Origin: Paracoccus stylophorae
GTDB lineage: Bacteria > Pseudomonadota > Alphaproteobacteria > Rhodobacterales > Rhodobacteraceae
DNA length: 64,000 bases
Assembly (NCBI RefSeq): GCF_028553765.1
Contig: NZ_CP067134.1
Span: 2,089,001 to 2,153,000, forward strand
Reading direction: 5' to 3'
Below, one piece after another: positions 24,468 through 34,105 of this stretch (positions are counted from its first letter, which is position 1; every line of letters begins with the position of its first letter). Position numbers and translations under genes: made by a program. Below the pieces are notes generated by a model that saw only the letters and a program-made list of their open reading frames with translations, did no database searches and was not told the DNA's origin.

Positions 24468-25382
24468 TCAGCCCTCGGCATAGGCCGCATACAGATCGGC
24501 CACCCGGCCCGTGACCGGACCCGGCAGCCCCGCGGGCAAGGCGCGGCCGTCGATACTGGCGACCGGGGTGATCCCGCCCAGCGTGCCGGTCACGAACGCC
24601 TCGTCGGCGGCATAGGTCTGGGCCAGCGTGAACGCACCCTCGCGCACCGTTCCGCCCGCCTCGCGCCACAGCCGGATCACCGTCGCGCGGGTGATCCCGC
24701 TGAAACAGCACGTCCCGTCCGAGGTCCACAGCGTATCCCCCCGCACGATAAAGAAATTCGTGGAATTGCAGCTTGCCACAAAGCCGCGGTCGTCCAGCAT
24801 CAGCGCCTCGTCCGCGCCCATGCCGACCGCCTGGTTCAGCGCCTGGATAAAGTTCAGCCGGCTGTGCGAATTCAGCCGCAGATCGAACACATCCGGCGTC
24901 GAACAGCGAATGGCCGAGGTCATCAGCCGCAGGCCCCGCGCCTTCAGTTCTGGGTTCGGACGCTTGTATTCCGCCAGGATCACGATGGTCGGACCCGAGG
25001 CGACAAAGCGCGGGTCCTGATTGATCGTGGTCTTGGTCCCGCGCGTCACCATCAGCCTGATATGGGCGCCGTCCTGCATGTCGTTGGCCGCCAGCGTGCG
25101 GAAGATTTCGTCCGCAAGTGCCTGACGATCCATGCCAATATTCAAACTGATCGAGTTCGCGCCCTCATACAGCCGGTCCAGATGCGCCGTCAGCGACAGG
25201 ATGCGCCCCCGCACCAGCCGCAACCCTTCCCACACCCCGTCGCCCAGCCCGAACCCGGCATCGAAGATCGACACGCGGGCCTGATCGCGCGGCACCATCT
25301 CGCCGTTCACATAGACCAGCACATCGTCGTTTCTGGCATCGTGGGCATAGCTTTGGGCGCTGTCCTGGCTGTCGTCGGTCAT
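24468..25382 (-). CDS. class IV aminotransferase-like protein, expected PLP lysine not found
   Basis: 304 residues with the branched-chain/D-amino-acid aminotransferase (fold type IV) layout: the N-terminal domain has YVNGEMVPRDQARVSIFDAG with GDGVWEGLRL, and the C-terminal domain has the class IV signature region ASCNSTNFFIVRG and GITRATVIRL with FVTGTLGGITPV. In active family members the Schiff-base lysine precedes the L-N segment; here that stretch is DLRLNSHSRLNF, and the only lysines in the whole protein are in GTKTT, YKRP and LKAR. It may be inactive, use a different chemistry, or I may misplace the site. It overlaps the HpcH aldolase gene upstream by four bases, so the two probably act on one 2-oxo/amino acid pathway. 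Confidence 0.82.
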   Translation of the reverse strand: MTDDSQDSAQSYAHDARNDDVLVYVNGEMVPRDQARVSIFDAGFGLGDGVWEGLRLVRGRILSLTAHLDRLYEGANSISLNIGMDRQALADEIFRTLAANDMQDGAHIRLMVTRGTKTTINQDPRFVASGPTIVILAEYKRPNPELKARGLRLMTSAIRCSTPDVFDLRLNSHSRLNFIQALNQAVGMGADEALMLDDRGFVASCNSTNFFIVRGDTLWTSDGTCCFSGITRATVIRLWREAGGTVREGAFTLAQTYAADEAFVTGTLGGITPVASIDGRALPAGLPGPVTGRVADLYAAYAEG

Positions 25383-26155
25383 GTCGTCTCCGGTCTTGTG
25401 CGCGCCTCGGCCAGGCTGGCCGCCAAAGCGCGCGTGAACATCCCTGTATCGGTCGACAGCGATGCGAAATCAAAGCCCTGGTGCAGCATGTTCGCGACCA
25501 TCGCGCCGCTGCCGCAATGGATGCCGGCCATCAACCCCGCCTGCCGGGCCGAGGTCAGGATGGCGCCGATCGCCTCCAGCACCTCGGGCGCGTCGGGTTG
25601 CAGCGTCGGTTCGTGACCCAGCGAAAGCCCCAGATCGGCCGGCCCGACATACACGCCCGACAACCCCTCGACCTGCATGATCGCGTCGCGATGGGCCAGC
25701 GCCTGCGCGGTTTCGATCATCGCAAAGACCTGCACCAGCCCGCCCGACCGCGCGACGTAATCGGGATGCAGCGAACCCGCCCGCGTCGGCCCATAGCTGC
25801 GCGTGCCAAGCGGCGCATAACGCGTCGCCGACACCAGCGCGCGCGCCTGATCGGGCGTGTTCACCATCGGGCAGACGATCCCCGTCGCGCCCGCATCCAG
25901 CATCTTCATCGCGATCCCCGGCTCGTTCCACGGGATGCGCACGAATTTCGGCGCCGGGCTGGCCGACATGGCCTGCAACATCGCCAGCGCCACCTGATAG
26001 TCGATCAGCCCGTGCTGCATGTCCACGGTCAGCATGTCGAACCCGGACCGCGCCACGATCTCGGCCGTGACCATCGACGGGATGCAGCACCAGCCGTTCA
26101 CCGCCTTGTTTCCGGCCGCGAAATAGGCCCGGAAATCGTCGCTTGTCAGCCGCAT
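25379..26155 (-). CDS. HpcH/HpaI family class II aldolase
   Basis: 258 residues. Motifs of the metal-dependent pyruvate aldolase family: TVDMQHGLIDY (active-site histidine), VRIPWNEPG, the metal-binding glutamate in FAMIETAQAL and aspartate in GPADLGLSLG. Cleaves 4-hydroxy-2-oxo acids to pyruvate (or glyoxylate) plus an aldehyde; related enzymes are 2-dehydro-3-deoxyglucarate and 4-hydroxy-2-oxoheptanedioate aldolases. Start at 26155 (MRLTSDDF) is the conserved one; upstream frame extension is cysteine-rich and unconserved. Its stop overlaps the start of the class IV aminotransferase-like gene (ATGA). Divergent from the SGNH esterase gene with 141 bases between. Confidence 0.9.
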   Translation of the reverse strand: MRLTSDDFRAYFAAGNKAVNGWCCIPSMVTAEIVARSGFDMLTVDMQHGLIDYQVALAMLQAMSASPAPKFVRIPWNEPGIAMKMLDAGATGIVCPMVNTPDQARALVSATRYAPLGTRSYGPTRAGSLHPDYVARSGGLVQVFAMIETAQALAHRDAIMQVEGLSGVYVGPADLGLSLGHEPTLQPDAPEVLEAIGAILTSARQAGLMAGIHCGSGAMVANMLHQGFDFASLSTDTGMFTRALAASLAEARTRPETT

Positions 26156-26296
26156 CCCAGCCTCGTTGCCTGTTTGCCGCCCGCAAAGGCAAGCATGACC
26201 TGTCCAAAAGAGCAAGCGGGGCGGAAGGTTGTTGCCAGATGCGGGCGCAGGCCGCTAACACCATGCCGATTGTCTTCAGCAGTGCAGGGCGCGCGC

Positions 26297-27499
26297 ATGT
26301 CGGGCGGAAAAATCTGGGTCATGCTGCCGGCGCTGGCCTCGGCCGGTCTGCTGTCGCTTGGGCTGTGGGCGGGCCAGCCGCAGCCGCCGGTAACCGGACC
26401 GACCCCGCCCGTGGCGACCGGCCCGCGCGCGCCCGCGGGGATGACGGTGCAGTTTCAGGCAGGCAGCCGGCCCGATGCCGCGATGTCGCCCCTGCCCGCG
26501 CGCGTGACGGGCCGTGCCGCACGCGATGGCGACGGCTATCTGCATCAATGGCCCGGCTTTCACGCCACCGCCCGGTTCAGCGGCACCGCCGTCGCGCTGG
26601 CCATCGACGACAGCGTCAACCGCTATCGCGTGACGCTGGACGAGACGCAAATCGTGCTGACCCGCGTGGGCGCAGGGATGCTGCGCATCGGCGGGCTTGC
26701 GCCCGGCCGCCACCAGATTAGGCTCGAGAAGCTGAGCGAAAGCGCCCAGATCGCGCGCTTCGACGGGTTTTTCCTGCCGGCGGGCGCGGACCCGCTGCCG
26801 CCGCCGGACCGGGCGCCGCTGATCGAGTTCGTGGGCGATTCCGACACCGTGGGCTATGGCAACACCGCCCCGGGCCGCGACTGCACGCCCGAACAGCAAT
26901 ATCTGGCCACCGACACCTCGATGGCCTACGGGCCGATGGCGGCGCGGGCGCTGGATGCCGATTACCGGATCGTCGCGGCCTCGGGGATCGGGCTTGTGCG
27001 CAATCTGGGCGGCGATCACGGTCCGGCCATGCAGGACCTGTATGACCGGACGATCCCGTCCCGTCCCGGCACCGCGCCGCAGCAGCCCGCCGACGTGATC
27101 GTGATCGCCGTGGGATCGAACGATTTCGCGGAACGGCCCGACCTGAAGGAAGGGCACCAGAACCTGATGCGCCAGCAGCGGATCTTCGCGTCCCGCCTGT
27201 TGCGGTTCATGCGCGCGCGGCGGGCCGAGGCACCCTCTGCCCGGATCGTCCTGCTGGTCTTTGGCGAATACGGCCGCAATCTGGTCGAGGCGCATGAAGA
27301 GGCGCGCGACGCCTTTGCGGCGGATGGCGACCGGGCCGATCTGCTGATCCTGCCGGAACTGGCGCGCACGGCCTGTCACTGGCACCCGTCGCTGAACGAC
27401 CACCAGATCATCGCGGGGATGCTCACCGACCTGCTGCAATCGCCCCGACCGGCGTCGGAACCGGGCGAGGATCGCGACGGCGACTTTCCCCCAAGCTGA
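26297..27499 (+). CDS. SGNH/GDSL hydrolase, CE2-like acetylesterase, membrane-anchored or secreted
   Basis: 400 residues. A hydrophobic stretch at 6-26 forms a signal peptide or anchor, then a proline-rich linker (27-46). Residues about 70-165 look like the N-terminal jelly-roll of family CE2, and the SGNH domain begins at FVGDSDTVGYGN with nucleophile S182. Block III is VGSNDF and the C-terminal catalytic histidine is H363 in CHWHPSLNDH, the CE2 pattern with a second histidine six residues on. CE2 enzymes remove acetyl groups from polysaccharides or transacetylate sugars. It is the first plus-strand gene before GT61, an acetyltransferase and the carrier-protein genes, which suggests trimming of an acetylated envelope glycan. 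Confidence 0.84.
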   Translation: MSGGKIWVMLPALASAGLLSLGLWAGQPQPPVTGPTPPVATGPRAPAGMTVQFQAGSRPDAAMSPLPARVTGRAARDGDGYLHQWPGFHATARFSGTAVALAIDDSVNRYRVTLDETQIVLTRVGAGMLRIGGLAPGRHQIRLEKLSESAQIARFDGFFLPAGADPLPPPDRAPLIEFVGDSDTVGYGNTAPGRDCTPEQQYLATDTSMAYGPMAARALDADYRIVAASGIGLVRNLGGDHGPAMQDLYDRTIPSRPGTAPQQPADVIVIAVGSNDFAERPDLKEGHQNLMRQQRIFASRLLRFMRARRAEAPSARIVLLVFGEYGRNLVEAHEEARDAFAADGDRADLLILPELARTACHWHPSLNDHQIIAGMLTDLLQSPRPASEPGEDRDGDFPPS

Positions 27500-27585
27500 T
27501 TCTGTCCTAACCTGCCGGGCCAGGGTCGGGTGGCGGCACCACGCGCCGCCGACCCTTGCCGATAGCCGACGGAGCCGCGACCGAC

Positions 27586-28632
27586 ATGCCGATGCGATCC
27601 CTGCGCCCGCTGGCCAACAAGATGCGTCGGCTGGCCCGGCTGCGTCAGCCCGGCCTGCTGGATCTTGCCGTGGACAGTTGGGAAATCTCGCCCGCCGAGA
27701 TCGTGGACGTGCCGCCGGTGATCTGCCTGCCCGGACAGGCCGACCGCATCACCCGCACCGAATTTGCCAGCCTCGACACCGTCCTGCGGTCGCTGGACGG
27801 CGATCCGGCCACGCCGATGGCCGCGACGCGGGGCTATCTGCTGCGCGACGTCGATTTCGTCGACGGCGTGCTTTACGCCGGTCGGGCCGAGCTGCATCTG
27901 CGCGCCCGGTCCCGGTCGGCGCTGGCGCATCGGCGGCCCGTCCGCAGCATGTCGGGCGCGCTTTACGAGACATGGGTGGGCAATCGCTGGTTCGGCAACT
28001 GGCTGCTGGACGATTGCCTGACCTATCGTCTGGCCGAGGATGCGGGCCATCCCGTCACCTCGACGCCCGAACGCGGCGGCCATGTCCCGCGATACGAGGA
28101 CTTGCTGGACATGTCGCCGCGCCGGGTCGGGGACGTTCATTTCGACGAATTGATCCTGTTCGACGACCATCCGAACAATTCCGGTCGTCTGGCGCGCGCC
28201 CAGGACATGCGCGCCCGGCTGCTGAAGGGCCGCGATCCGCAGCCCAATCCTGGCGTCTTTCTGTATCGCGGCCGCAGCGGCGATGCGCGGGTTCTGGAAA
28301 ACGAGGATGAGCTGGCCGAAAAGCTGCACGTCCATTACGGCTTTCGGGTGATGTTCCCCGAGGATCACACGGTCGATGAATTGCTGGACGCCTGCGGCGC
28401 CACGCAGATCGTGGCCGGGGTTGAGGGCAGCCAGCTGAATCACGGCATGACGGTGATGCCGCCCGGCGGCACGCTGCTGACCCTGCAACCGGCCGACCGC
28501 GCGACGACGGCGATGAAGCTTCTGACCGACCGCTGGCAACAGCGTTTCGCGATGATCGTGGGTCCGGGGACCGCCGGTTCCTTTCGCATTCCATGGGACG
28601 ATGTCCGGCGCACGCTGGACCTGATCCTGTAG
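27586..28632 (+). CDS. glycosyltransferase family 61 protein
   Basis: 348 residues, DUF563/GT61 type. Recognisable features are the central GALYETWVGNRWFGNWLLDDCL region (a family hallmark around the H/N-W-x-D block), LYRGRSGDARVLENEDEL, and the C-terminal GVEGSQLNHGMTVMPPGGTLL, which corresponds to the conserved E-G-S/G-A-x-x-N sequence of GT61 active sites. In Rhodobacterales, GT61 proteins typically occur in capsule or exopolysaccharide clusters. No membrane segment, so probably cytosolic or peripheral. The ATG at 27586 (MPMRSL) has GGAG 11 bases upstream; ATG 27592 and TTG 27556 are alternatives. 87 bases after the CE2-like gene, same strand. Confidence 0.82.
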   Translation: MPMRSLRPLANKMRRLARLRQPGLLDLAVDSWEISPAEIVDVPPVICLPGQADRITRTEFASLDTVLRSLDGDPATPMAATRGYLLRDVDFVDGVLYAGRAELHLRARSRSALAHRRPVRSMSGALYETWVGNRWFGNWLLDDCLTYRLAEDAGHPVTSTPERGGHVPRYEDLLDMSPRRVGDVHFDELILFDDHPNNSGRLARAQDMRARLLKGRDPQPNPGVFLYRGRSGDARVLENEDELAEKLHVHYGFRVMFPEDHTVDELLDACGATQIVAGVEGSQLNHGMTVMPPGGTLLTLQPADRATTAMKLLTDRWQQRFAMIVGPGTAGSFRIPWDDVRRTLDLIL

Positions 28633-28674
28633 TTTTGGACAATTTGGCTGCATTCAGGTCAATATGAGATTGAA

Positions 28675-29307
28675 ATGACAGGGCCCGCCGGTCATTTTGC
28701 AGCCTCGGAAAGGGTTGAGCCGTTGGCGGCGATACATCCTTTGCATGTTTTGCAAGTTCGGAGTTTTCGGCCAGTGTGGCAACAGATACGCAAAGATTAC
28801 GACCGGCACGGACGCCGGATCACCGATGCGGCGTTCATATCGCTGGCTGTCCATCGCTATGGCCGGTGGGCGATGCAGCGCCGGAACCGCGTGGCGCGCT
28901 GGATCGCCAACAAGGTCTATGGGCTGATGACGATCCTGATCCTGAACGTGACCAAGGTCTGGATTCCGCCGAATGTGCAGCTGGGCGAGGATTTTCATAT
29001 TATCCATGCCGAAGGCTCGCTGTCGATCCATCCCGACGTGGTGATCGGGGACCGCTGCGGCGTCATGCACAACGTCACCATCGGCACCAATATGGGACCG
29101 GGCGCGCCGAAGATCGGCGATGACGTGTTCATCGGCGTCAACGCGACCGTGCTGGGCCGCATCAGGATCGGCAACCGCGTGCGCATCGGCGCAAACACCG
29201 CGGTGACGACCAATGTTCCCGATGACTGCATCGTCGTCGGATCGCCCGGACGGATCTTTCCCAGCCTGCCGATCTTCGCGCAGAAGAAAAAGGCGGAACA
29301 GCCGTGA
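28675..29307 (+). CDS. serine acetyltransferase-like left-handed beta-helix acyltransferase
   Basis: 210 residues. The N-terminal helical half (QIRKDYDRHGRRITDAAFISLAVHRYG) resembles CysE-like enzymes of polysaccharide clusters, and the C-terminal half has hexapeptide repeats: GEDFHIIHAEGSLSIHP, VIGDRCGVMHNVTIG, IGDDVFIGVNATVLGRIRIG, with the acetyl-CoA site near NTAVTTNVPDDCIVVGSPGR. A true cysteine-pathway role is doubtful given the context; O-acetylation of a sugar or of a carrier-bound group is more likely. The 5' 130 bases are clearly less GC-rich than the surroundings, so the exact start is uncertain (ATG 28675 with GAGA upstream, or a TTG near 28723). The stop overlaps the next gene's GTG. 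Confidence 0.84.
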   Translation: MTGPAGHFAASERVEPLAAIHPLHVLQVRSFRPVWQQIRKDYDRHGRRITDAAFISLAVHRYGRWAMQRRNRVARWIANKVYGLMTILILNVTKVWIPPNVQLGEDFHIIHAEGSLSIHPDVVIGDRCGVMHNVTIGTNMGPGAPKIGDDVFIGVNATVLGRIRIGNRVRIGANTAVTTNVPDDCIVVGSPGRIFPSLPIFAQKKKAEQP

Positions 29308-30881
29308 TCGCGGGCGGCGATTCCTCGATGTGGCGGCTGCTGGCCGACAATCTGCCTGCCCGTCCGGACAAGGTGGCGCTGATCGACGCGCGGCGGCAGG
29401 CAAGCTTTGCCGAGGTCGCGGCCGAGGCCGGGCGCGTGGCGGCCTGGCTGGCGGAACGCGGCGTAAATCCGGGCGACCGGGTGATCGTGCATCTGCGCAA
29501 GGGCATCGACGAGGTGACGGCGATGTTCGGCGCCTGGAAGATCGGCGCGGTGGTGGTGAACGTGAACCATCAGTGGACGCCGGCGCAACTGTCCTATGTG
29601 GCGGGCGACTGCCGGGCACGCGCGGCCATTCTGGGCGCGAACGTGCTGAAGGGGCTGGCCGCCGATCCGCTGCCGGGATCGGTCGAACATCTGCTGGTGC
29701 AGGGGCGCGCGACCGCCCTGCCCGACGGCGCGGCGGCATGGGACGATCTGCCCGCCGCCGACGGTCCCGAGGCGCGCGTCGATCCCGGCGATCTGGCGGC
29801 GATCATCTATACCTCGGGGTCGACCGGCAAACCCAAGGGCGTGATGCTGAGCCATCGCAACATCCGCGTGGGCGCGGTGTCGGTCTCGCAATATCTGGGG
29901 CTGGCTGCGGATGACCGGCTGCTGTCGGTCCTGCCCTACAGCTTCGATGCCGGGCTGAACCAGCTGACCGATGCGTTGCTGATGGGGGCGACGGTGATCC
30001 ACCAGCCCGTCGCGATGCCGTCCGAGGTGGTGCGGATGGCCGCCGAACACGGCGCCACGACCATCGCGGGCGTGCCGCCGCTGTGGAATCAGGTGGTGCG
30101 CTATCTGGCCGATGCCGCCATCCCGCTGCCCGCCCTGCGGCGGGTAACCAATACGGGGGGCAAGATTCCCCCCAATATCCTGGAACTGATGCCGCAGGTG
30201 TTTCCCGGCGCCGACATCTTTCTGATGTATGGTTTGACCGAGGCATTCCGGTCCACCTATCTGCCGCCCGCAAAGTTCGCGCGCAAGATGGGCTCGATCG
30301 GGCAGGCGATCCCGAACGCGCAGATCTTCGTGGTCCGCCATGGCGAGGGGATCGCGGGGCCGGGACAGCAGGGCGAACTGGTCCATGCCGGCCCGCTGGT
30401 CAGCATGGGATACTGGGAACGCCCCGATCTGACCGCCGAAAAGATCCGCGTGCTGCCGGAGTTGCGCGACGTGCTGGGCGATGCGCCGGTGGTCTGCTCG
30501 GGCGATCTGGTGCGCGTGGACGAGGACGGCGATCTGTGGTTCGTCAGCCGCATGGACGACATGATCAAGACGCAGGGATTCCGCCTGTCGCCCACCGAGG
30601 TCGAGGATATCGTGTCGCAATCGGGCATCGTGACCGATGTGGTCGCCTTCGGAATCGAGGATGACGATGCCGGCCAGGTCGTTCATGTCGCCGCCAGCCT
30701 GATCGGACAGGCGGATGCGCCCGCGCTGCTGGCCCACTGCCGCCGGGCCATGGCGCATTACATGGTTCCGCGCCATATTCACCCGTGGGCAGGGGCGATG
30801 CCCCGCACCGCCAGCGGCAAGCTGGACCGCCCCGCCATCATCGCCGCCGCCAGGGCGGCCCGCCAGAAGGACATTGCATGA
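29304..30881 (+). CDS. AMP-forming acyl/aminoacyl ligase (ANL superfamily)
   Basis: 525 residues, GTG start overlapping the previous stop (GTGA). P-loop-like motif YTSGSTGKPKG at 169-179, A5 motif MYGLTEAFRSTYLP, A7 GDLVRVDEDGDLWFVSRMDD, A8 hinge IKTQGFRLSPTEVE and the C-terminal catalytic lysine K506 in TASGKLDRP. It resembles the ligases annotated as exosortase-A-associated acyl-CoA ligases and also free-standing adenylation enzymes that load acyl carrier proteins. Because a discrete ACP gene overlaps its stop, I infer that it charges that ACP; the acid substrate (fatty, hydroxy or amino acid) cannot be read from sequence. Confidence 0.9.
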   Translation: MIAGGDSSMWRLLADNLPARPDKVALIDARRQASFAEVAAEAGRVAAWLAERGVNPGDRVIVHLRKGIDEVTAMFGAWKIGAVVVNVNHQWTPAQLSYVAGDCRARAAILGANVLKGLAADPLPGSVEHLLVQGRATALPDGAAAWDDLPAADGPEARVDPGDLAAIIYTSGSTGKPKGVMLSHRNIRVGAVSVSQYLGLAADDRLLSVLPYSFDAGLNQLTDALLMGATVIHQPVAMPSEVVRMAAEHGATTIAGVPPLWNQVVRYLADAAIPLPALRRVTNTGGKIPPNILELMPQVFPGADIFLMYGLTEAFRSTYLPPAKFARKMGSIGQAIPNAQIFVVRHGEGIAGPGQQGELVHAGPLVSMGYWERPDLTAEKIRVLPELRDVLGDAPVVCSGDLVRVDEDGDLWFVSRMDDMIKTQGFRLSPTEVEDIVSQSGIVTDVVAFGIEDDDAGQVVHVAASLIGQADAPALLAHCRRAMAHYMVPRHIHPWAGAMPRTASGKLDRPAIIAAARAARQKDIA

Positions 30882-31114
30882 GCCTGACCGCCGACGACCT
30901 GATCCGCTTTATCCGCGACGAGTTGAACATCGAGGACGAGATCGACCCCGAAACCGAGCTGTTCTCGACCGGGATCCTCGATTCCGTCGCGATGATGAAC
31001 ATCATCGGCTTTGTCGAGGAAAAGACCGGGATCGAGGTGCGCCCCGCCGATGTGACGCTGGAGAATTTCGACACCTGCCAACGGATCGTGGAATACGCGC
31101 GTGAACAGGCCTGA
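30878..31114 (+). CDS. stand-alone acyl/peptidyl carrier protein
   Basis: 78 residues, acidic, four-helix carrier size. The phosphopantetheine attachment serine is S36 in TGILDSVAMMN (the usual D-S-L is D-S-V here), preceded by ETELFSTG. It is clearly not the housekeeping AcpP, whose motif is more conserved and which lies by fab genes. ATG overlaps the ligase stop (ATGA), and the gene's end overlaps the decarboxylase start by 14 bases, so ligase, carrier and decarboxylase should be made together. Confidence 0.92.
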   Translation: MSLTADDLIRFIRDELNIEDEIDPETELFSTGILDSVAMMNIIGFVEEKTGIEVRPADVTLENFDTCQRIVEYAREQA

Positions 31115-32345
31115 ACCCGACACCGACCGCATCCTGACGCAGGCGGCGGAACGGTTCGGCACGCCCGCCTATGTCTATCTGACCGATGTGATCGAGGCGC
31201 GGATCGCGGCGTTGCAGGCGGCGTTCGGCCGCTGGTTCAGGCTGTCCTATGCGATGAAGTGCAACCCGAACCCGGCGCTGCTGGCCTGGCTGAACGGGCG
31301 CGTGCCGTTCATCGACGTGTCCTCGGGCGGGGAATTCCTGCTGGCGACCGGCGCGGGCTGGGATGCAGGCCGGGCCAGCTTTACCGGCCCCGCCAAGCGC
31401 GAGGTCGAGTTGCGCACGGCCATCGGCGCGGGTCTGGGCGAGTTGGTGATCGAATCGCTGCGCGAGGCGCGGCTGGCGGATCGCATCGCGGCCGGGCTGG
31501 GGCGGCGTCAGAACGTGCTGATCCGCATCGCGCCCGACCGCGTGCCCAAGGGTTTCGGCGACCAGATGGCGGGCCGGCCCAGCCCTTTCGGCATCGACGT
31601 GGAAGAGGCCCCCGAGGCGCTGGCCCAGATCATGGCGCTGCCCAATCTGCGCGTCGCGGGGCTGCACATCTATTCCGGCACGCAATGCCTGAAACCCGCC
31701 GCCATCGTGGAAAACTGGGGCATCTTCACCGCCATCTTCCGCGATCTGTGCGCGTCCCACGACCTGCGCCCCGACCGGCTGATCTTTGGCGCGGGTCTGG
31801 GCATCCCCTATCACCCGGGCGATGCGCCGCTGGATCTGGAACAGGTGGCGGCGGGCGCGGCCGACGATCTGGACGCGCTGACATCCGATCCGCGCTTTGC
31901 GGACACCGAACTGGTGCTGGAACTGGGCCGCTATCTGGTCGGCCCGGCGGGGTACTTCGTCACCCGCGTCACCTCGGTCAAAGACTCGCGCGGCACCCGG
32001 ATCGCGATCTGCGACGGGGGCATGAACACGCATCTGGCGGCATCGGGGCATTTCGGCATGGTGCTGCGCCGGAACTATGTCATCCATCGCGTCGGCGGCG
32101 GCGAGGGCGAGGTGAAGACCGACATCTCCGGCCCGCTTTGCACCTCGATCGACAAGCTGGGCACGAATGTCGTCCTGCCGCGTCTGGATGAGGGCGATCT
32201 GATCGCGATCCATGCCAGCGGCGCCTATGGTCCGACCTCAAGCCCGGTGAACTTCATCAGCCACCCCACCCCACGCGAGATCGTCGCCGAGGGCGGGCAA
32301 TTGCGCGACGCCACCCGGATCGAAGGGGCGGGGCTGCGCGACTAA
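31101..32345 (+). CDS. LysA-type (fold III) PLP-dependent decarboxylase
   Basis: 414 residues, GTG start inside the ACP gene. Alanine-racemase-fold barrel with the PLP lysine K53 in SYAMKCNPNP, the glycine-rich phosphate loop FGAGLGIPY, the C-terminal ELGRYLVGPAGYF and the second-subunit catalytic cysteine in GPLCTSID. Length fits diaminopimelate/ornithine decarboxylase relatives annotated as exosortase-A-associated. Adjacent placement to an ACP and ligase recalls BtrK of butirosin synthesis, which decarboxylates glutamate while attached to the carrier BtrI; a similar carrier-bound reaction is my inference. General lysine synthesis is less likely in this context. Confidence 0.88.
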   Translation: MNRPEPDTDRILTQAAERFGTPAYVYLTDVIEARIAALQAAFGRWFRLSYAMKCNPNPALLAWLNGRVPFIDVSSGGEFLLATGAGWDAGRASFTGPAKREVELRTAIGAGLGELVIESLREARLADRIAAGLGRRQNVLIRIAPDRVPKGFGDQMAGRPSPFGIDVEEAPEALAQIMALPNLRVAGLHIYSGTQCLKPAAIVENWGIFTAIFRDLCASHDLRPDRLIFGAGLGIPYHPGDAPLDLEQVAAGAADDLDALTSDPRFADTELVLELGRYLVGPAGYFVTRVTSVKDSRGTRIAICDGGMNTHLAASGHFGMVLRRNYVIHRVGGGEGEVKTDISGPLCTSIDKLGTNVVLPRLDEGDLIAIHASGAYGPTSSPVNFISHPTPREIVAEGGQLRDATRIEGAGLRD

Positions 32346-32410: not shown

Positions 32411-34105
32411 ATGGACGATCTTGAACGGCGCATCGCGCAGGCGCGCGGCGATGAACCGGCCGATCTGGTGCTGCGCGGCGGGCGTGTGTTCGATCTGATC
32501 ACCGGCGAGACGATCGAGGGCGATGTCGCGATCTGCGGCGACCGGATCGCGGGCGTGGGCGATTATCAGGGACGCGAGGTGATCGACGTCACCGGACTGA
32601 CGCTGGTGCCGGGGTTCATCGACACGCATCTGCACGTCGAATCCAGCCTGGTCACGCCCTTCGAATTCGACCGCTGCGTGACCCCGCGCGGCATCACCAC
32701 CGCGATCTGCGACCCGCACGAGATCGCCAATGTCATCGGTCTGGACGGCATCCGGTATTTCCAGCAGGCCTCGCCGCATCTGCTGATGGATCTGCGGGTG
32801 CAACTGCCGTCCTGCGTGCCCTCGACCCAGATGGAGACCGCCGGCGCGCGGATCGAAGCGGACGATCTGCGCGAGGTCATGGACCATCCCTCGGGCATCG
32901 GGCTGGCCGAATTCATGAACTATCCCGGCGTCATCCACCGCGATCCGACCGCAATGGCCAAGCTGCGCCTGTTTGCGGGCAAGCATATCGACGGGCATTG
33001 CCCGCAACTGTCCGGGCGCGACCTGAACGCCTATGTCGCCGCCGGCATCCGCACCGAGCACGAGGCGACGACGGCCGACGAGGCGCGGGAAAAGCTGCGC
33101 AAGGGGATGCGGGTGCTGATCCGCGAGGGTTCGGTCAGCAAGGATCTGCGGGCGCTGCAACCGGTGCTGGACGAACGCACGTCGCCCTATATGTGCCTGT
33201 GCACGGATGATCGCAATCCGCTGGACATCGCGGAACACGGCCATCTGGATCACATGATCCGCACGCTGATCGTGATCGGCACGCCGCCGCTGGCCGCCTA
33301 TCGCGCCGCCTCGCTGTCGGGGGCCGAGGCGTTCGGCCTGAAGGATCGCGGGCTGATCGCGCCGGGGCTGCGCGCCGATATCGTGGCGCTGGACAGTCTG
33401 GAGGGTTGTCACGCGCAGATCGTGCTGTGCGCCGGCAGGGTCGTGGACGCGGCGGCCTTTGCCTCGCGCGGCAGCGTGGCGCCGGTGGGGCGCAACTCCG
33501 TCCGCGCGCCGCGTGTCGGCGCCGCCGATTTCCGCTGCACGGGCAACCGGGTCGAAACCGATGTGATCGGCATCGAGGAAGGCCGGATCATCACCCGCCA
33601 TTTGGTGGAAGACATCGCGCCGCAGGACGGCGACAAGCGGCCGGACACGTCGCGCGACCTGCTGCGGATCGCGGTGATCGAACGGCACGGCAAGAACGGC
33701 AACATCGCGACCGGCTTCGTGCGCGGCTTCGGCATGACGCGCGGCGCGATGGCCGGCACGGTCTGCCACGATCACCACAACATCGCCGTGGTCGGCGCGG
33801 ATTATGACGACATGGCGCTGGCCGCGAACCGGCTGTCGGCCATCGAAGGCGGGTTCGTGGTGGCGGAAAACGGCCGCATCCTGGCCGAGCTTGCCTTGCC
33901 GGTCGCCGGGCTGATGAGCCTTGAGCCGTTCGAGACGGTGCGCGACCGGCTGGCCGATCTGCGCCGCGCGGCCGCAAGCCTGGGCGTGGTGCTGGACGAG
34001 CCGTTCCTGCAACTGGCGTTCCTGGCGCTGCCGGTCATTCCGGCGCTGAAGATCACCGATCGCGGCATGGTCGATGTCGAACGCTTCGAGATCATCGCGC
34101 GCTAG
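32411..34105 (+). CDS. ade: adenine deaminase
   Basis: 564 residues, usual AdeC length. Amidohydrolase metal motif [11 protein letters not shown], then [12 protein letters not shown], the conserved [14 protein letters not shown], and CTDDRNPLD; the C-terminal domain includes [17 protein letters not shown]. Hydrolyses adenine to hypoxanthine in purine salvage, cytosolic, Mn/Fe-dependent. GGAGG lies eight bases before the ATG. It starts 66 bases after the decarboxylase gene on the same strand; read-through from the cluster is possible but a functional link is not evident. Confidence 0.95.

What the first reader, a model, noticed from the sequence alone, without database searches (positions are those of the whole stretch)
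26297..32345. Carrier-protein-linked decoration cluster: CE2-like esterase, GT61, beta-helix acyltransferase, AMP ligase, ACP, fold-III decarboxylase
Four genes (28675-32345) overlap by 4, 4 and 14 bases, and two glycan-active genes precede them on the same strand. A free-standing ACP (S36 in TGILDSVAMMN) flanked by an ANL ligase and a LysA-like decarboxylase recalls BtrI/BtrJ/BtrK in butirosin synthesis, where a dicarboxylic amino acid is decarboxylated on the carrier. Hypothesis: the ligase loads an amino acid on the ACP, the decarboxylase makes an amine or omega-amino acid, and the acetyltransferase/GT61/esterase place or trim it on an envelope glycan. The ligase and decarboxylase also resemble genes annotated as exosortase-A-associated, yet no exosortase, EpsH or PEP-CTERM protein is visible here, so this could be an exosortase-independent use of the module.
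Basis: partly seen in the sequence, partly recalled or inferred. Interest (0 to 1): 0.75.

Follow-up and report, generated by a model that had tools for sequence, protein, structure and literature searches.

The report
Carrier-bound amino-acid decarboxylation cassette for glycans
A six-gene cassette in a Paracoccus-type bacterium probably turns aspartate (or glutamate) into a small amine-bearing building block while it is tied to a carrier protein, and attaches it to a surface sugar polymer, a chemistry so far described mainly for antibiotics and lipopeptides.

Summary
CE2-type esterase, GT61, left-handed beta-helix acyltransferase, ANL ligase, free-standing ACP and BtrK-like decarboxylase lie on one strand at 26297-32345; the last four overlap by 4, 4 and 14 bases. 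It is not a chance neighbourhood: of 63 named loci whose decarboxylase is at least 45% identical, 60 keep ligase-ACP-decarboxylase in order, 58 add the acyltransferase and 52 also GT61. The ligase carries the VinN signature Asp/Ser-Thr/Arg (62 of 62) and the decarboxylase groups with BtrK, not LysA, so a carrier-tethered beta-alanyl (from Asp) or GABA-type (from Glu) group is the best prediction. The genome has no detectable exosortase; 24 of 38 related genomes searched have none. New here: 37 of these 38 also carry an NRPS marked by TIGR04020, against 10 of 384 others in the class; where read, it sits beside a type I PKS in polysaccharide-type loci, and in Seohaeicola and Rhizobium the cassette lies inside such a locus. 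Most likely it makes an optional aminoacyl decoration of that polymer. Product and acceptor are inferred. New variant of a known kind.

The parts
26297..27499 (+). CE2-type (CE2_N + SGNH/GDSL) carbohydrate esterase, 400 aa, hydrophobic N-terminal stretch (probable signal anchor, judged by eye)
   Evidence: PF17996 57 bits, PF13472 37 bits; upstream of GT61 in 28 of 63 related loci, 27 of them in named Rhodobacterales genera and one an unplaced alphaproteobacterial MAG
27556..28632 (+). GT61 glycosyltransferase (start TTG 27556 or ATG 27592)
   Evidence: PF04577 56 bits; upstream of the acyltransferase in 52 of 63 related loci
28774..29307 (+). Left-handed beta-helix (hexapeptide) acyltransferase, 177 aa; the longer ORF starts at 28675
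   Evidence: PF00132; below the cut-offs of EpsC (92 of 150 bits) and CysE (79 of 210 bits); H75, H86, H99, N106 in 61 of 61
29304..30881 (+). VinN-type ANL (AMP-forming) ligase, 525 aa
   Evidence: PF00501; TIGR03098 510 bits, below its cut-off of 592; D215, T/S284 and R316 in 62 of 62
30878..31114 (+). Free-standing carrier protein, 78 aa, phosphopantetheine serine S36
   Evidence: PF00550; D35 and S36 in 63 of 63; closest solved chain CcbZ, DltC-type carriers further down the list of 8
31101..32345 (+). Fold-III (alanine racemase fold) PLP decarboxylase of the BtrK side, 414 aa
   Evidence: BtrK 209 bits versus best LysA 151 bits; C347-T348 in 64 of 64 where the seven LysA rows have Cys-Glu; tree

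Best explanation
The cassette is an acyl-donor and transfer device. Proposed steps: (1) a phosphopantetheinyl transferase, possibly the Sfp-type one in the unlinked PKS/NRPS locus, arms the ACP at S36; (2) the ligase activates the side-chain carboxyl of an acidic alpha-amino acid, most likely the beta-carboxyl of L-Asp, and loads it on the ACP; (3) the decarboxylase removes the free alpha-carboxyl on the carrier, giving beta-alanyl-S-ACP (or gamma-aminobutyryl-S-ACP if Glu); (4) the beta-helix acyltransferase moves that group, which keeps a free amine, to a sugar hydroxyl or amine; (5) GT61 supplies or follows the acceptor sugar; (6) the CE2-type enzyme, where present, trims ester groups outside the cytoplasm. 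The polymer is probably the product of the PKS/NRPS-containing polysaccharide-type locus that nearly every searched bearer of the cassette also has; the cassette is an optional decoration. Shown by sequence: gene set, order, conservation, VinN and BtrK signatures, co-occurrence. Inferred: amino acid, transfer by the beta-helix enzyme, acceptor, nature of the polymer, roles of GT61 and CE2.
For: Ligase: Asp, Ser/Thr and Arg at the places of VinN D230/S299/R331, with identical spacings (69 and 101), in 62 of 62 ligases; three own-genome CoA-ligase-type ORFs (of five tried; two were not picked up by the script) have none of the three (VinN residues from passages of PMC11253843 and PMC7756342). 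Decarboxylase: BtrK best by sequence, BtrK side of the tree at 100/100, Cys-Thr in 64 of 64; a separate LysA-type gene exists in the genome (Cys-Glu motif). In vitro precedent with the same three parts: AfcQ activates L-Asp, and AfcP acts on carrier-bound Asp to give beta-Ala (PMC12186527 passages). Unit inheritance: acyltransferase, ligase and decarboxylase occur in the same 11 of 49 genus genomes; one further genome (G040, 620 contigs) has the acyltransferase alone, 317 bases from a contig start. Polymer link: TIGR04020 over cut-off in 37 of 38 searched genomes, and in 35 of 35 if the three loci failing the acyltransferase-ligase-ACP-decarboxylase pattern are left out, versus 10 of 384 others in the class and 17 of 198 others in the family of the Rhizobium bearer (18 of 199 with it). 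Within the genus 11 of 11 bearers versus 11 of 38 non-bearers have it. The cassette lies inside such a locus in Seohaeicola and Rhizobium.
Confidence: 0.6

Rival explanations
1. The triad feeds a beta-amino acid unit to the PKS or NRPS itself, as in vicenistatin, and GT61, acyltransferase and CE2 tailor the resulting glycolipid or glycopeptide.
For: VinN/VinL/VinO deliver a beta-amino starter to a PKS (PMC11284099 passages); near-strict co-occurrence with the NRPS, which stands beside a PKS in the genomes read; cassette directly behind PKS-GT2-NRPS-PPTase in Seohaeicola.
Against: 11 of 22 genus genomes with TIGR04020 over cut-off have no decarboxylase ortholog of 57% or more, so the assembly line does not seem to need it. 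No second adenylation enzyme (VinM) or VinK-like acyltransferase is encoded between 26297 and 32345; instead a beta-helix acyltransferase and GT61 are conserved.
Confidence: 0.22
2. The genes are ordinary metabolism: a CoA ligase, a second diaminopimelate decarboxylase and a serine acetyltransferase that happen to be adjacent, as the automatic names suggest.
For: Public names such as 'diaminopimelate decarboxylase', 'AMP-dependent synthetase' and 'serine acetyltransferase'; CysE-like fold.
Against: Conserved compact block in 58 of 63 loci; separate LysA-type gene at C1:675376; below the NCBIfam cut-offs of those enzymes in the rows shown (25 of 108 families for the ligase); VinN and BtrK signatures.
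Confidence: 0.05
3. It is a member of the exosortase-A (XrtA) associated set of EPS genes whose exosortase was lost or escaped detection.
For: TIGR03098 and TIGR03099 are the best NCBIfam matches; TIGR03007 (XrtA chain length determinant) is matched in the Rhizobium locus, 128 bits of a cut-off of 279; 14 of 38 searched genomes have an exosortase match, in five of them 7-21 kb, and in a sixth 25 kb, from the TIGR04020 stretch.
Against: Both scores are under the families' cut-offs (510 of 592; 357 of 478); no PF09721 match in the own genome or in 24 of 38 (23 of the 35 with the four-gene block); the S. meliloti version annotated as XrtA-associated has another order (ligase-decarboxylase-ACP) and no tblastn match to the window's GT61 or acyltransferase in the 29 kb read.
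Confidence: 0.08
4. The ACP-bound product serves something else, and the beta-helix enzyme O-acetylates the glycan from acetyl-CoA, with CE2 removing the acetyl groups.
For: CysE-like sequence and fold (the model is weak); CE2 families remove acetyl groups from sugars (family knowledge).
Against: The beta-helix gene is closely joined to the triad (58 of 63 loci; overlapping the ligase in 37 of 59 measured pairs with starts chosen by script), while CE2 is found in only 28 of 63.
Confidence: 0.2

Closest known systems
VinN/VinL/VinO of vicenistatin biosynthesis (PMC11284099, passages seen)
   Same: ANL enzyme loads an acidic amino acid through its side-chain carboxyl on a free-standing ACP; a PLP decarboxylase then acts on the carrier-bound substrate. 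The ligase here has the VinN Asp/Ser-Thr/Arg signature and 31% identity to VinN over 381 structurally aligned residues.
   Different: There the product goes to a PKS by way of VinM and VinK; here a GT61, a beta-helix acyltransferase and often a CE2 esterase accompany the triad, in Gram-negative genomes with a polysaccharide-type locus.
AfcQ/AfcK/AfcP (AFC-BC11) and BolO/BolC/BolN (bolagladins) of Burkholderia (PMC12186527, PMC7756342; passages)
   Same: Same three parts; L-Asp to beta-Ala on the carrier (AfcQ/K/P shown in vitro; BolO/C/N proposed).
   Different: They build lipopeptides; no GT61, CE2 or beta-helix acyltransferase is named in the passages seen (a UDP-glycosyltransferase-type gene is, for AFC-BC11).
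BtrI/BtrJ/BtrK of butirosin biosynthesis (BtrK: PMC7857480 passages)
   Same: Its decarboxylase is the closest with a solved structure; it acts on glutamyl-S-BtrI to give GABA-S-BtrI.
   Different: BtrJ is, as I recall, an ATP-grasp ligase, not an ANL enzyme; the product ends on an aminoglycoside.
Exosortase-A associated ligase and decarboxylase, TIGR03098 and TIGR03099
   Same: Best NCBIfam matches; the same Asp/Thr-Ser/Arg signature is present in the three XrtA-type ligases examined (L156 by its annotation; L053 and L054 by my label).
   Different: Scores below cut-off, no exosortase found in the genome, other gene order in S. meliloti.
Dlt system (DltA ligase, DltC carrier)
   Same: Works alike in outline: an ANL ligase and a small carrier put an amino-bearing acyl group on an envelope polymer; the ACP matches DltC models weakly.
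   Different: Dlt uses D-Ala without decarboxylation and a membrane O-acyltransferase (family knowledge); here a BtrK-like decarboxylase and a beta-helix enzyme.

Membership tests
VinN-type carrier-bound decarboxylation triad (chemistry core) | ANL ligase with Asp230, Ser299 and Arg331 equivalents | tested here: met
   D215, T/S284 (38 Thr, 24 Ser), R316 in 62 of 62, same spacings as in VinN (69 and 101); mapped by motif and spacing, not by direct alignment to VinN
VinN-type carrier-bound decarboxylation triad (chemistry core) | beta13-beta14 loop one residue shorter than in alpha-amino-acid A domains | tested here: inconclusive
   The Arg stands 3 residues after the Glu of YGxTE here; GrsA C331 stands 4 after it (GrsA motif recalled). 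Consistent, but resting on a recalled motif
VinN-type carrier-bound decarboxylation triad (chemistry core) | Free-standing ACP with phosphopantetheine serine next to the ligase | tested here: met
   PF00550; D35-S36 in 63 of 63
VinN-type carrier-bound decarboxylation triad (chemistry core) | PLP decarboxylase on the BtrK side rather than LysA | tested here: met
   BtrK 209 versus LysA 151 bits; split at 100/100; Cys-Thr motif in 64 of 64. VinO itself was not in the tree, and BtrK is a long branch
VinN-type carrier-bound decarboxylation triad (chemistry core) | Decarboxylation of the ACP-bound amino acid | not testable with these tools
   needs purified proteins
Beta-amino-acid macrolactam starter cassette | Further VinM-like adenylation enzyme and VinK-like acyltransferase with the triad | tested here: not met
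   none encoded between 26297 and 32345; not sought elsewhere in the genome
XrtA (exosortase A) associated EPS genes | Scores over the TIGR03098 and TIGR03099 cut-offs | tested here: not met
   509.9 of 592.35 and 357.4 of 478.45 bits
XrtA (exosortase A) associated EPS genes | Exosortase in the genome | tested here: not met
   0 PF09721 matches at E 0.001 in the own genome, 100% complete; a very divergent one could be missed
Butirosin BtrI/BtrJ/BtrK | ATP-grasp ligase (BtrJ, recalled) as partner | tested here: not met
   the ligase is ANL (PF00501)
CysE/EpsC serine O-acetyltransferase | Scores over the family cut-offs | tested here: not met
   EpsC 92.2 of 150; CysE 79.3 of 210.65 bits
CysE/EpsC serine O-acetyltransferase | Asp-His of the LDHATG motif (catalytic or substrate-binding role recalled) | tested here: not met
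   Asp replaced by Ile or Val in 61 of 61; His is Asn in 6 of 61
Dlt D-alanylation system | DltB-type membrane O-acyltransferase | not tested
   no search for it was made

The most novel reading that the evidence does not exclude
Many Alphaproteobacteria make a surface polysaccharide with the help of a type I PKS and a formyltransferase-adenylation-luciferase-like NRPS, and an optional cassette adds carrier-made beta-alanine (or GABA) to it, giving the polymer free amines: a Gram-negative, decarboxylating counterpart of Dlt. The exosortase-A associated 'acyl-CoA ligase' and 'decarboxylase' families (TIGR03098/TIGR03099) would do the same chemistry and be misnamed.
Probability: 0.4. Interest if true: 0.8.

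Novelty: new variant of a known kind. Interest (0 to 1): 0.62.

Why it matters
Carrier-bound decarboxylation is described, in the papers seen, for antibiotics and lipopeptides. A widely inherited version beside GT61 and a beta-helix acyltransferase would be a new way to put positive charge on an envelope glycan, and would suggest a function for two hypothetical families of the exosortase setting. It also ties an unassigned class of PKS/NRPS-bearing polysaccharide-type loci to a concrete, testable decoration.

Tried and rejected
Whole-genome scripting was not possible. The structure model of the acyltransferase is weak (mean pLDDT 66); the 50 chains listed by Foldseek are serine acetyltransferases, so no acyl-ACP user was identified and I draw nothing from absences there. 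The fold comparison of the ligase does not set VinN apart from CoA ligases, so specificity rests on residues only. In the profile search VinN (229 bits) is nearly tied with a threonine A domain (226) and FadD5 (224), behind gramicidin synthase and 8xjz. HMMER alignments of the ligase to VinN could not be displayed because gramicidin synthase entries filled the list. The idea that the neighbouring gmd/Fcl-like/RfbH-like genes make an amino-sugar acceptor was dropped: the third enzyme is nearest RfbH, a dehydrase (recalled), below cut-off, so a 3,6-dideoxyhexose is as likely. A first tree with the distant row L121 had a long-branch warning and was rebuilt without it; L054, L123 and L125 did not enter the tree because the script found no usable ORF or reference for them. 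Literature: ten full-text searches listed no paper that, by title, start of abstract or the passages opened, describes this cassette or the TIGR04020 polysaccharide-type locus; this covers only the open-licence PMC library. PMC1569441 (PEP-CTERM/EpsH) holds none of the terms ligase, decarboxylase, acyl carrier, AMP-binding or GT61.

Selections and rows left out: searches were given 39 of the 71 fetched loci, chosen by me to spread over genera; L099 was not held and not searched. Lists are cut for genomes without a match, so their tallies are used. L079, L085 and L088 are short contigs and were kept in the counts. In one search partner genes were counted only above fixed bit scores and within fixed distances upstream of the decarboxylase. 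In the genus test G026, G039 (46-48% homologues) and G041 (pieces) were counted as non-bearers; the count with G026 and G039 as bearers is given above.
Full report
What is there. The window is G000:C1:2089001-2153000 of a 3.64 Mb, 100% complete genome; the nearest named relatives of the genes are Paracoccus. Upstream lie an aminotransferase-IV gene (24468-25382, minus strand) and a minus-strand ORF that I did not scan (25470-26264); downstream an adenine-deaminase-type gene starts at 32411. Between them are six plus-strand genes: CE2-type esterase, GT61, beta-helix acyltransferase, ANL ligase, ACP and fold-III decarboxylase. The overlaps of 4, 4 and 14 bases are exact. The acyltransferase probably starts at 28774.

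Conservation. The search for related loci with the decarboxylase gave 71 loci. With fixed bit-score and distance limits, 63 have a decarboxylase of at least 45% identity; 60 of the 63 keep ligase-ACP-decarboxylase in order, 58 add the acyltransferase, 52 add GT61 and 28 have all six. The 8 remaining loci (30% or less) have none. The 58 include Paracoccus, Gemmobacter, Fertoeibacter, Seohaeicola, Rubellimicrobium, Rhizobium, Neorhizobium, Hyphomicrobium, Novosphingobium and Sphingobium. The six-gene set also sits on Paracoccus plasmids pFER4 and pAMI5. With starts chosen by script, neighbouring genes overlap in 37 of 59 (acyltransferase-ligase), 24 of 60 (ligase-ACP) and 52 of 62 (ACP-decarboxylase) measured pairs.

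Chemistry of the triad. The ligase has Asp, Thr or Ser, and Arg at 215, 284 and 316 in 62 of 62 sequences. In VinN, D230 and S299/R331 are proposed to hold the amino group and the alpha-carboxyl of 3-methylaspartate, so that the side-chain carboxyl is activated (PMC7756342 and PMC11253843, passages). The spacings 69 and 101 agree exactly. AfcQ, another enzyme with this Arg, activates L-Asp, and AfcP acts on the carrier-bound Asp to give beta-Ala (PMC12186527, passages). Three CoA-ligase-type ORFs of the own genome, used as controls (five were tried), have none of the three residues; the own NRPS adenylation domain has the Asp but not the other two. The decarboxylase matches BtrK at 209 bits and the best LysA at 151; BtrK and the cassette enzymes form one side of the tree and seven LysA-type rows the other, at 100/100 (also separated with the distant row included). 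BtrK itself is a long branch. The motif GPLCT, shared with BtrK, stands where the LysA rows have GPxCE; the Thr is present in 64 of 64. A LysA-type gene lies elsewhere in the genome (32% identity). So the triad very probably makes an omega-aminoacyl-ACP; Asp to beta-alanyl is preferred because VinN, BolO and AfcQ act, or are proposed to act, on Asp-type substrates, but Glu to GABA, as with BtrK (PMC7857480 passages), is not excluded.

The acyltransferase has a CysE-type sequence and fold but falls below the cut-offs of CysE and EpsC, and the Asp of CysE's LDHATG motif is Ile or Val in 61 of 61. H75, H86, H99 and N106 are invariant in the 61. That it takes the group from the ACP is an inference from gene order.

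Not an exosortase system. PF09721 has no match in the own genome, and 24 of 38 searched genomes have none; 14 have one. Counting only the 35 with the four-gene block, 23 have none and 12 have one. The scores to TIGR03098 and TIGR03099 are below cut-off. The ligases of three XrtA-type loci (S. meliloti L156 by annotation, L053 and L054 by my label from their neighbours) nevertheless carry the same Asp/Thr-Ser/Arg signature, which suggests that the name 'acyl-CoA ligase' of TIGR03098 is wrong.

Polysaccharide partner. In Seohaeicola and Rhizobium the cassette lies within a locus with Wza, Wzz, WecG-type, GT4 and GT2 genes, a type I PKS, an NRPS with an adenylation domain split by a luciferase-like monooxygenase and a PCP, and an Sfp-type PPTase. 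The own genome has PKS, GT2, NRPS (with an N-terminal formyltransferase domain) and PPTase in a row at C1:1704650-1717305, about 398 kb from the cassette, with GT, Wzz-like, PHPT and weakly Wzy-like genes beside them. Of ten other genomes read, the PKS stands next to the NRPS in nine by BLAST and in the tenth (G043) by the TIGR04020 position; a GT2 lies beside them in eight and a PPTase match in five. In G043 the TIGR04020 stretch is 18 kb from the decarboxylase. The NRPS is marked by TIGR04020. I gave 39 of the 71 loci; of 38 genomes searched, 37 have it over cut-off, the miss being a Verrucomicrobia MAG without the acyltransferase gene; of the 35 with the four-gene block all 35 have it. Background: 10 of 384 other genomes of the class and 17 of 198 others in the family of the Rhizobium bearer. 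Within the genus, 22 of 49 genomes have it; the 11 with a decarboxylase ortholog of at least 57% identity all do (Fisher p 2.4e-5), and so does G040, which has the acyltransferase only. With the two 46-48% homologues counted as bearers it is 11 of 13 versus 11 of 36, p 0.001. None of these tests is corrected for descent; 15 of the 38 genomes are Paracoccus. Eleven genus genomes have the NRPS but no such ortholog. So the cassette goes with the locus but not the reverse: it behaves as an optional decoration. Ligase and acyltransferase follow the decarboxylase genome by genome. Distant decarboxylase homologues (37-46%) do not follow the NRPS: 2 of 11 in the class sample, so the tie is a property of this cassette and not of the wider family.

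Alternatives are weighed in Rival explanations. The strongest is that the triad feeds the PKS/NRPS; the 11 genomes with the NRPS and no decarboxylase ortholog, and the conserved beta-helix enzyme and GT61, speak against it.

Verdict. Its core chemistry is of a known kind; its partners and setting were not found described in the papers searched. I rate it a new variant of a known kind.

Noticed in passing
G000:C1:1701453-1724112 (L128, L129, L130), outside the window: Own genome carries PKS-GT2-NRPS(formyltransferase-A-luciferase-like-A-PCP)-PPTase beside polysaccharide-type genes. Of ten other genomes read, PKS next to NRPS in nine by BLAST (tenth by TIGR04020 position), GT2 beside them in eight, PPTase match in five. 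No paper found that describes it.
   Followed up: partly
L156:12316-13908 (Sinorhizobium meliloti), L053:7328-8917, L054:10209-11828: Ligases of the exosortase-A associated type carry the VinN-like Asp/Thr-Ser/Arg signature, so 'acyl-CoA ligase' (TIGR03098) looks misnamed.
   Followed up: partly
G089:C8, G094:C3, G096:C35, G110:C12, G112:C46, G102:C16: In six searched genomes an exosortase match (48-65 bits in four, 217 in G094, 210 in G102) lies 7-25 kb from the TIGR04020 stretch.
   Followed up: no
G041:C34:158904-159898: A same-genus genome with TIGR04020 over cut-off has a decarboxylase match only in pieces beside a CE2 match, and no acyltransferase or ligase match: perhaps a decayed cassette.
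   Followed up: no
L155:991-4202 and L116:1955-5217: In Paracoccus ferrooxidans and P. denitrificans the cassette is preceded by gmd, an Fcl-like and an RfbH-like gene (the Fcl-like gene was scanned in L155 only), pointing to a GDP-6-deoxy or 3,6-dideoxy sugar.
   Followed up: partly
L117:8199-16748: A Rhodobacterales genome has a distant ligase-ACP-decarboxylase set next to an NRPS-like gene, perhaps a lipopeptide-type cluster.
   Followed up: no
L154:10340-14307: A Burkholderia cenocepacia replicon has a ligase (42% identity) and a decarboxylase (40%) followed by an ORF of 372 aa; in Tritonibacter and Gemmobacter plasmid hits the feature under the match is named an acyl-CoA dehydrogenase family protein. 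It recalls the bolagladin or AFC type.
   Followed up: no
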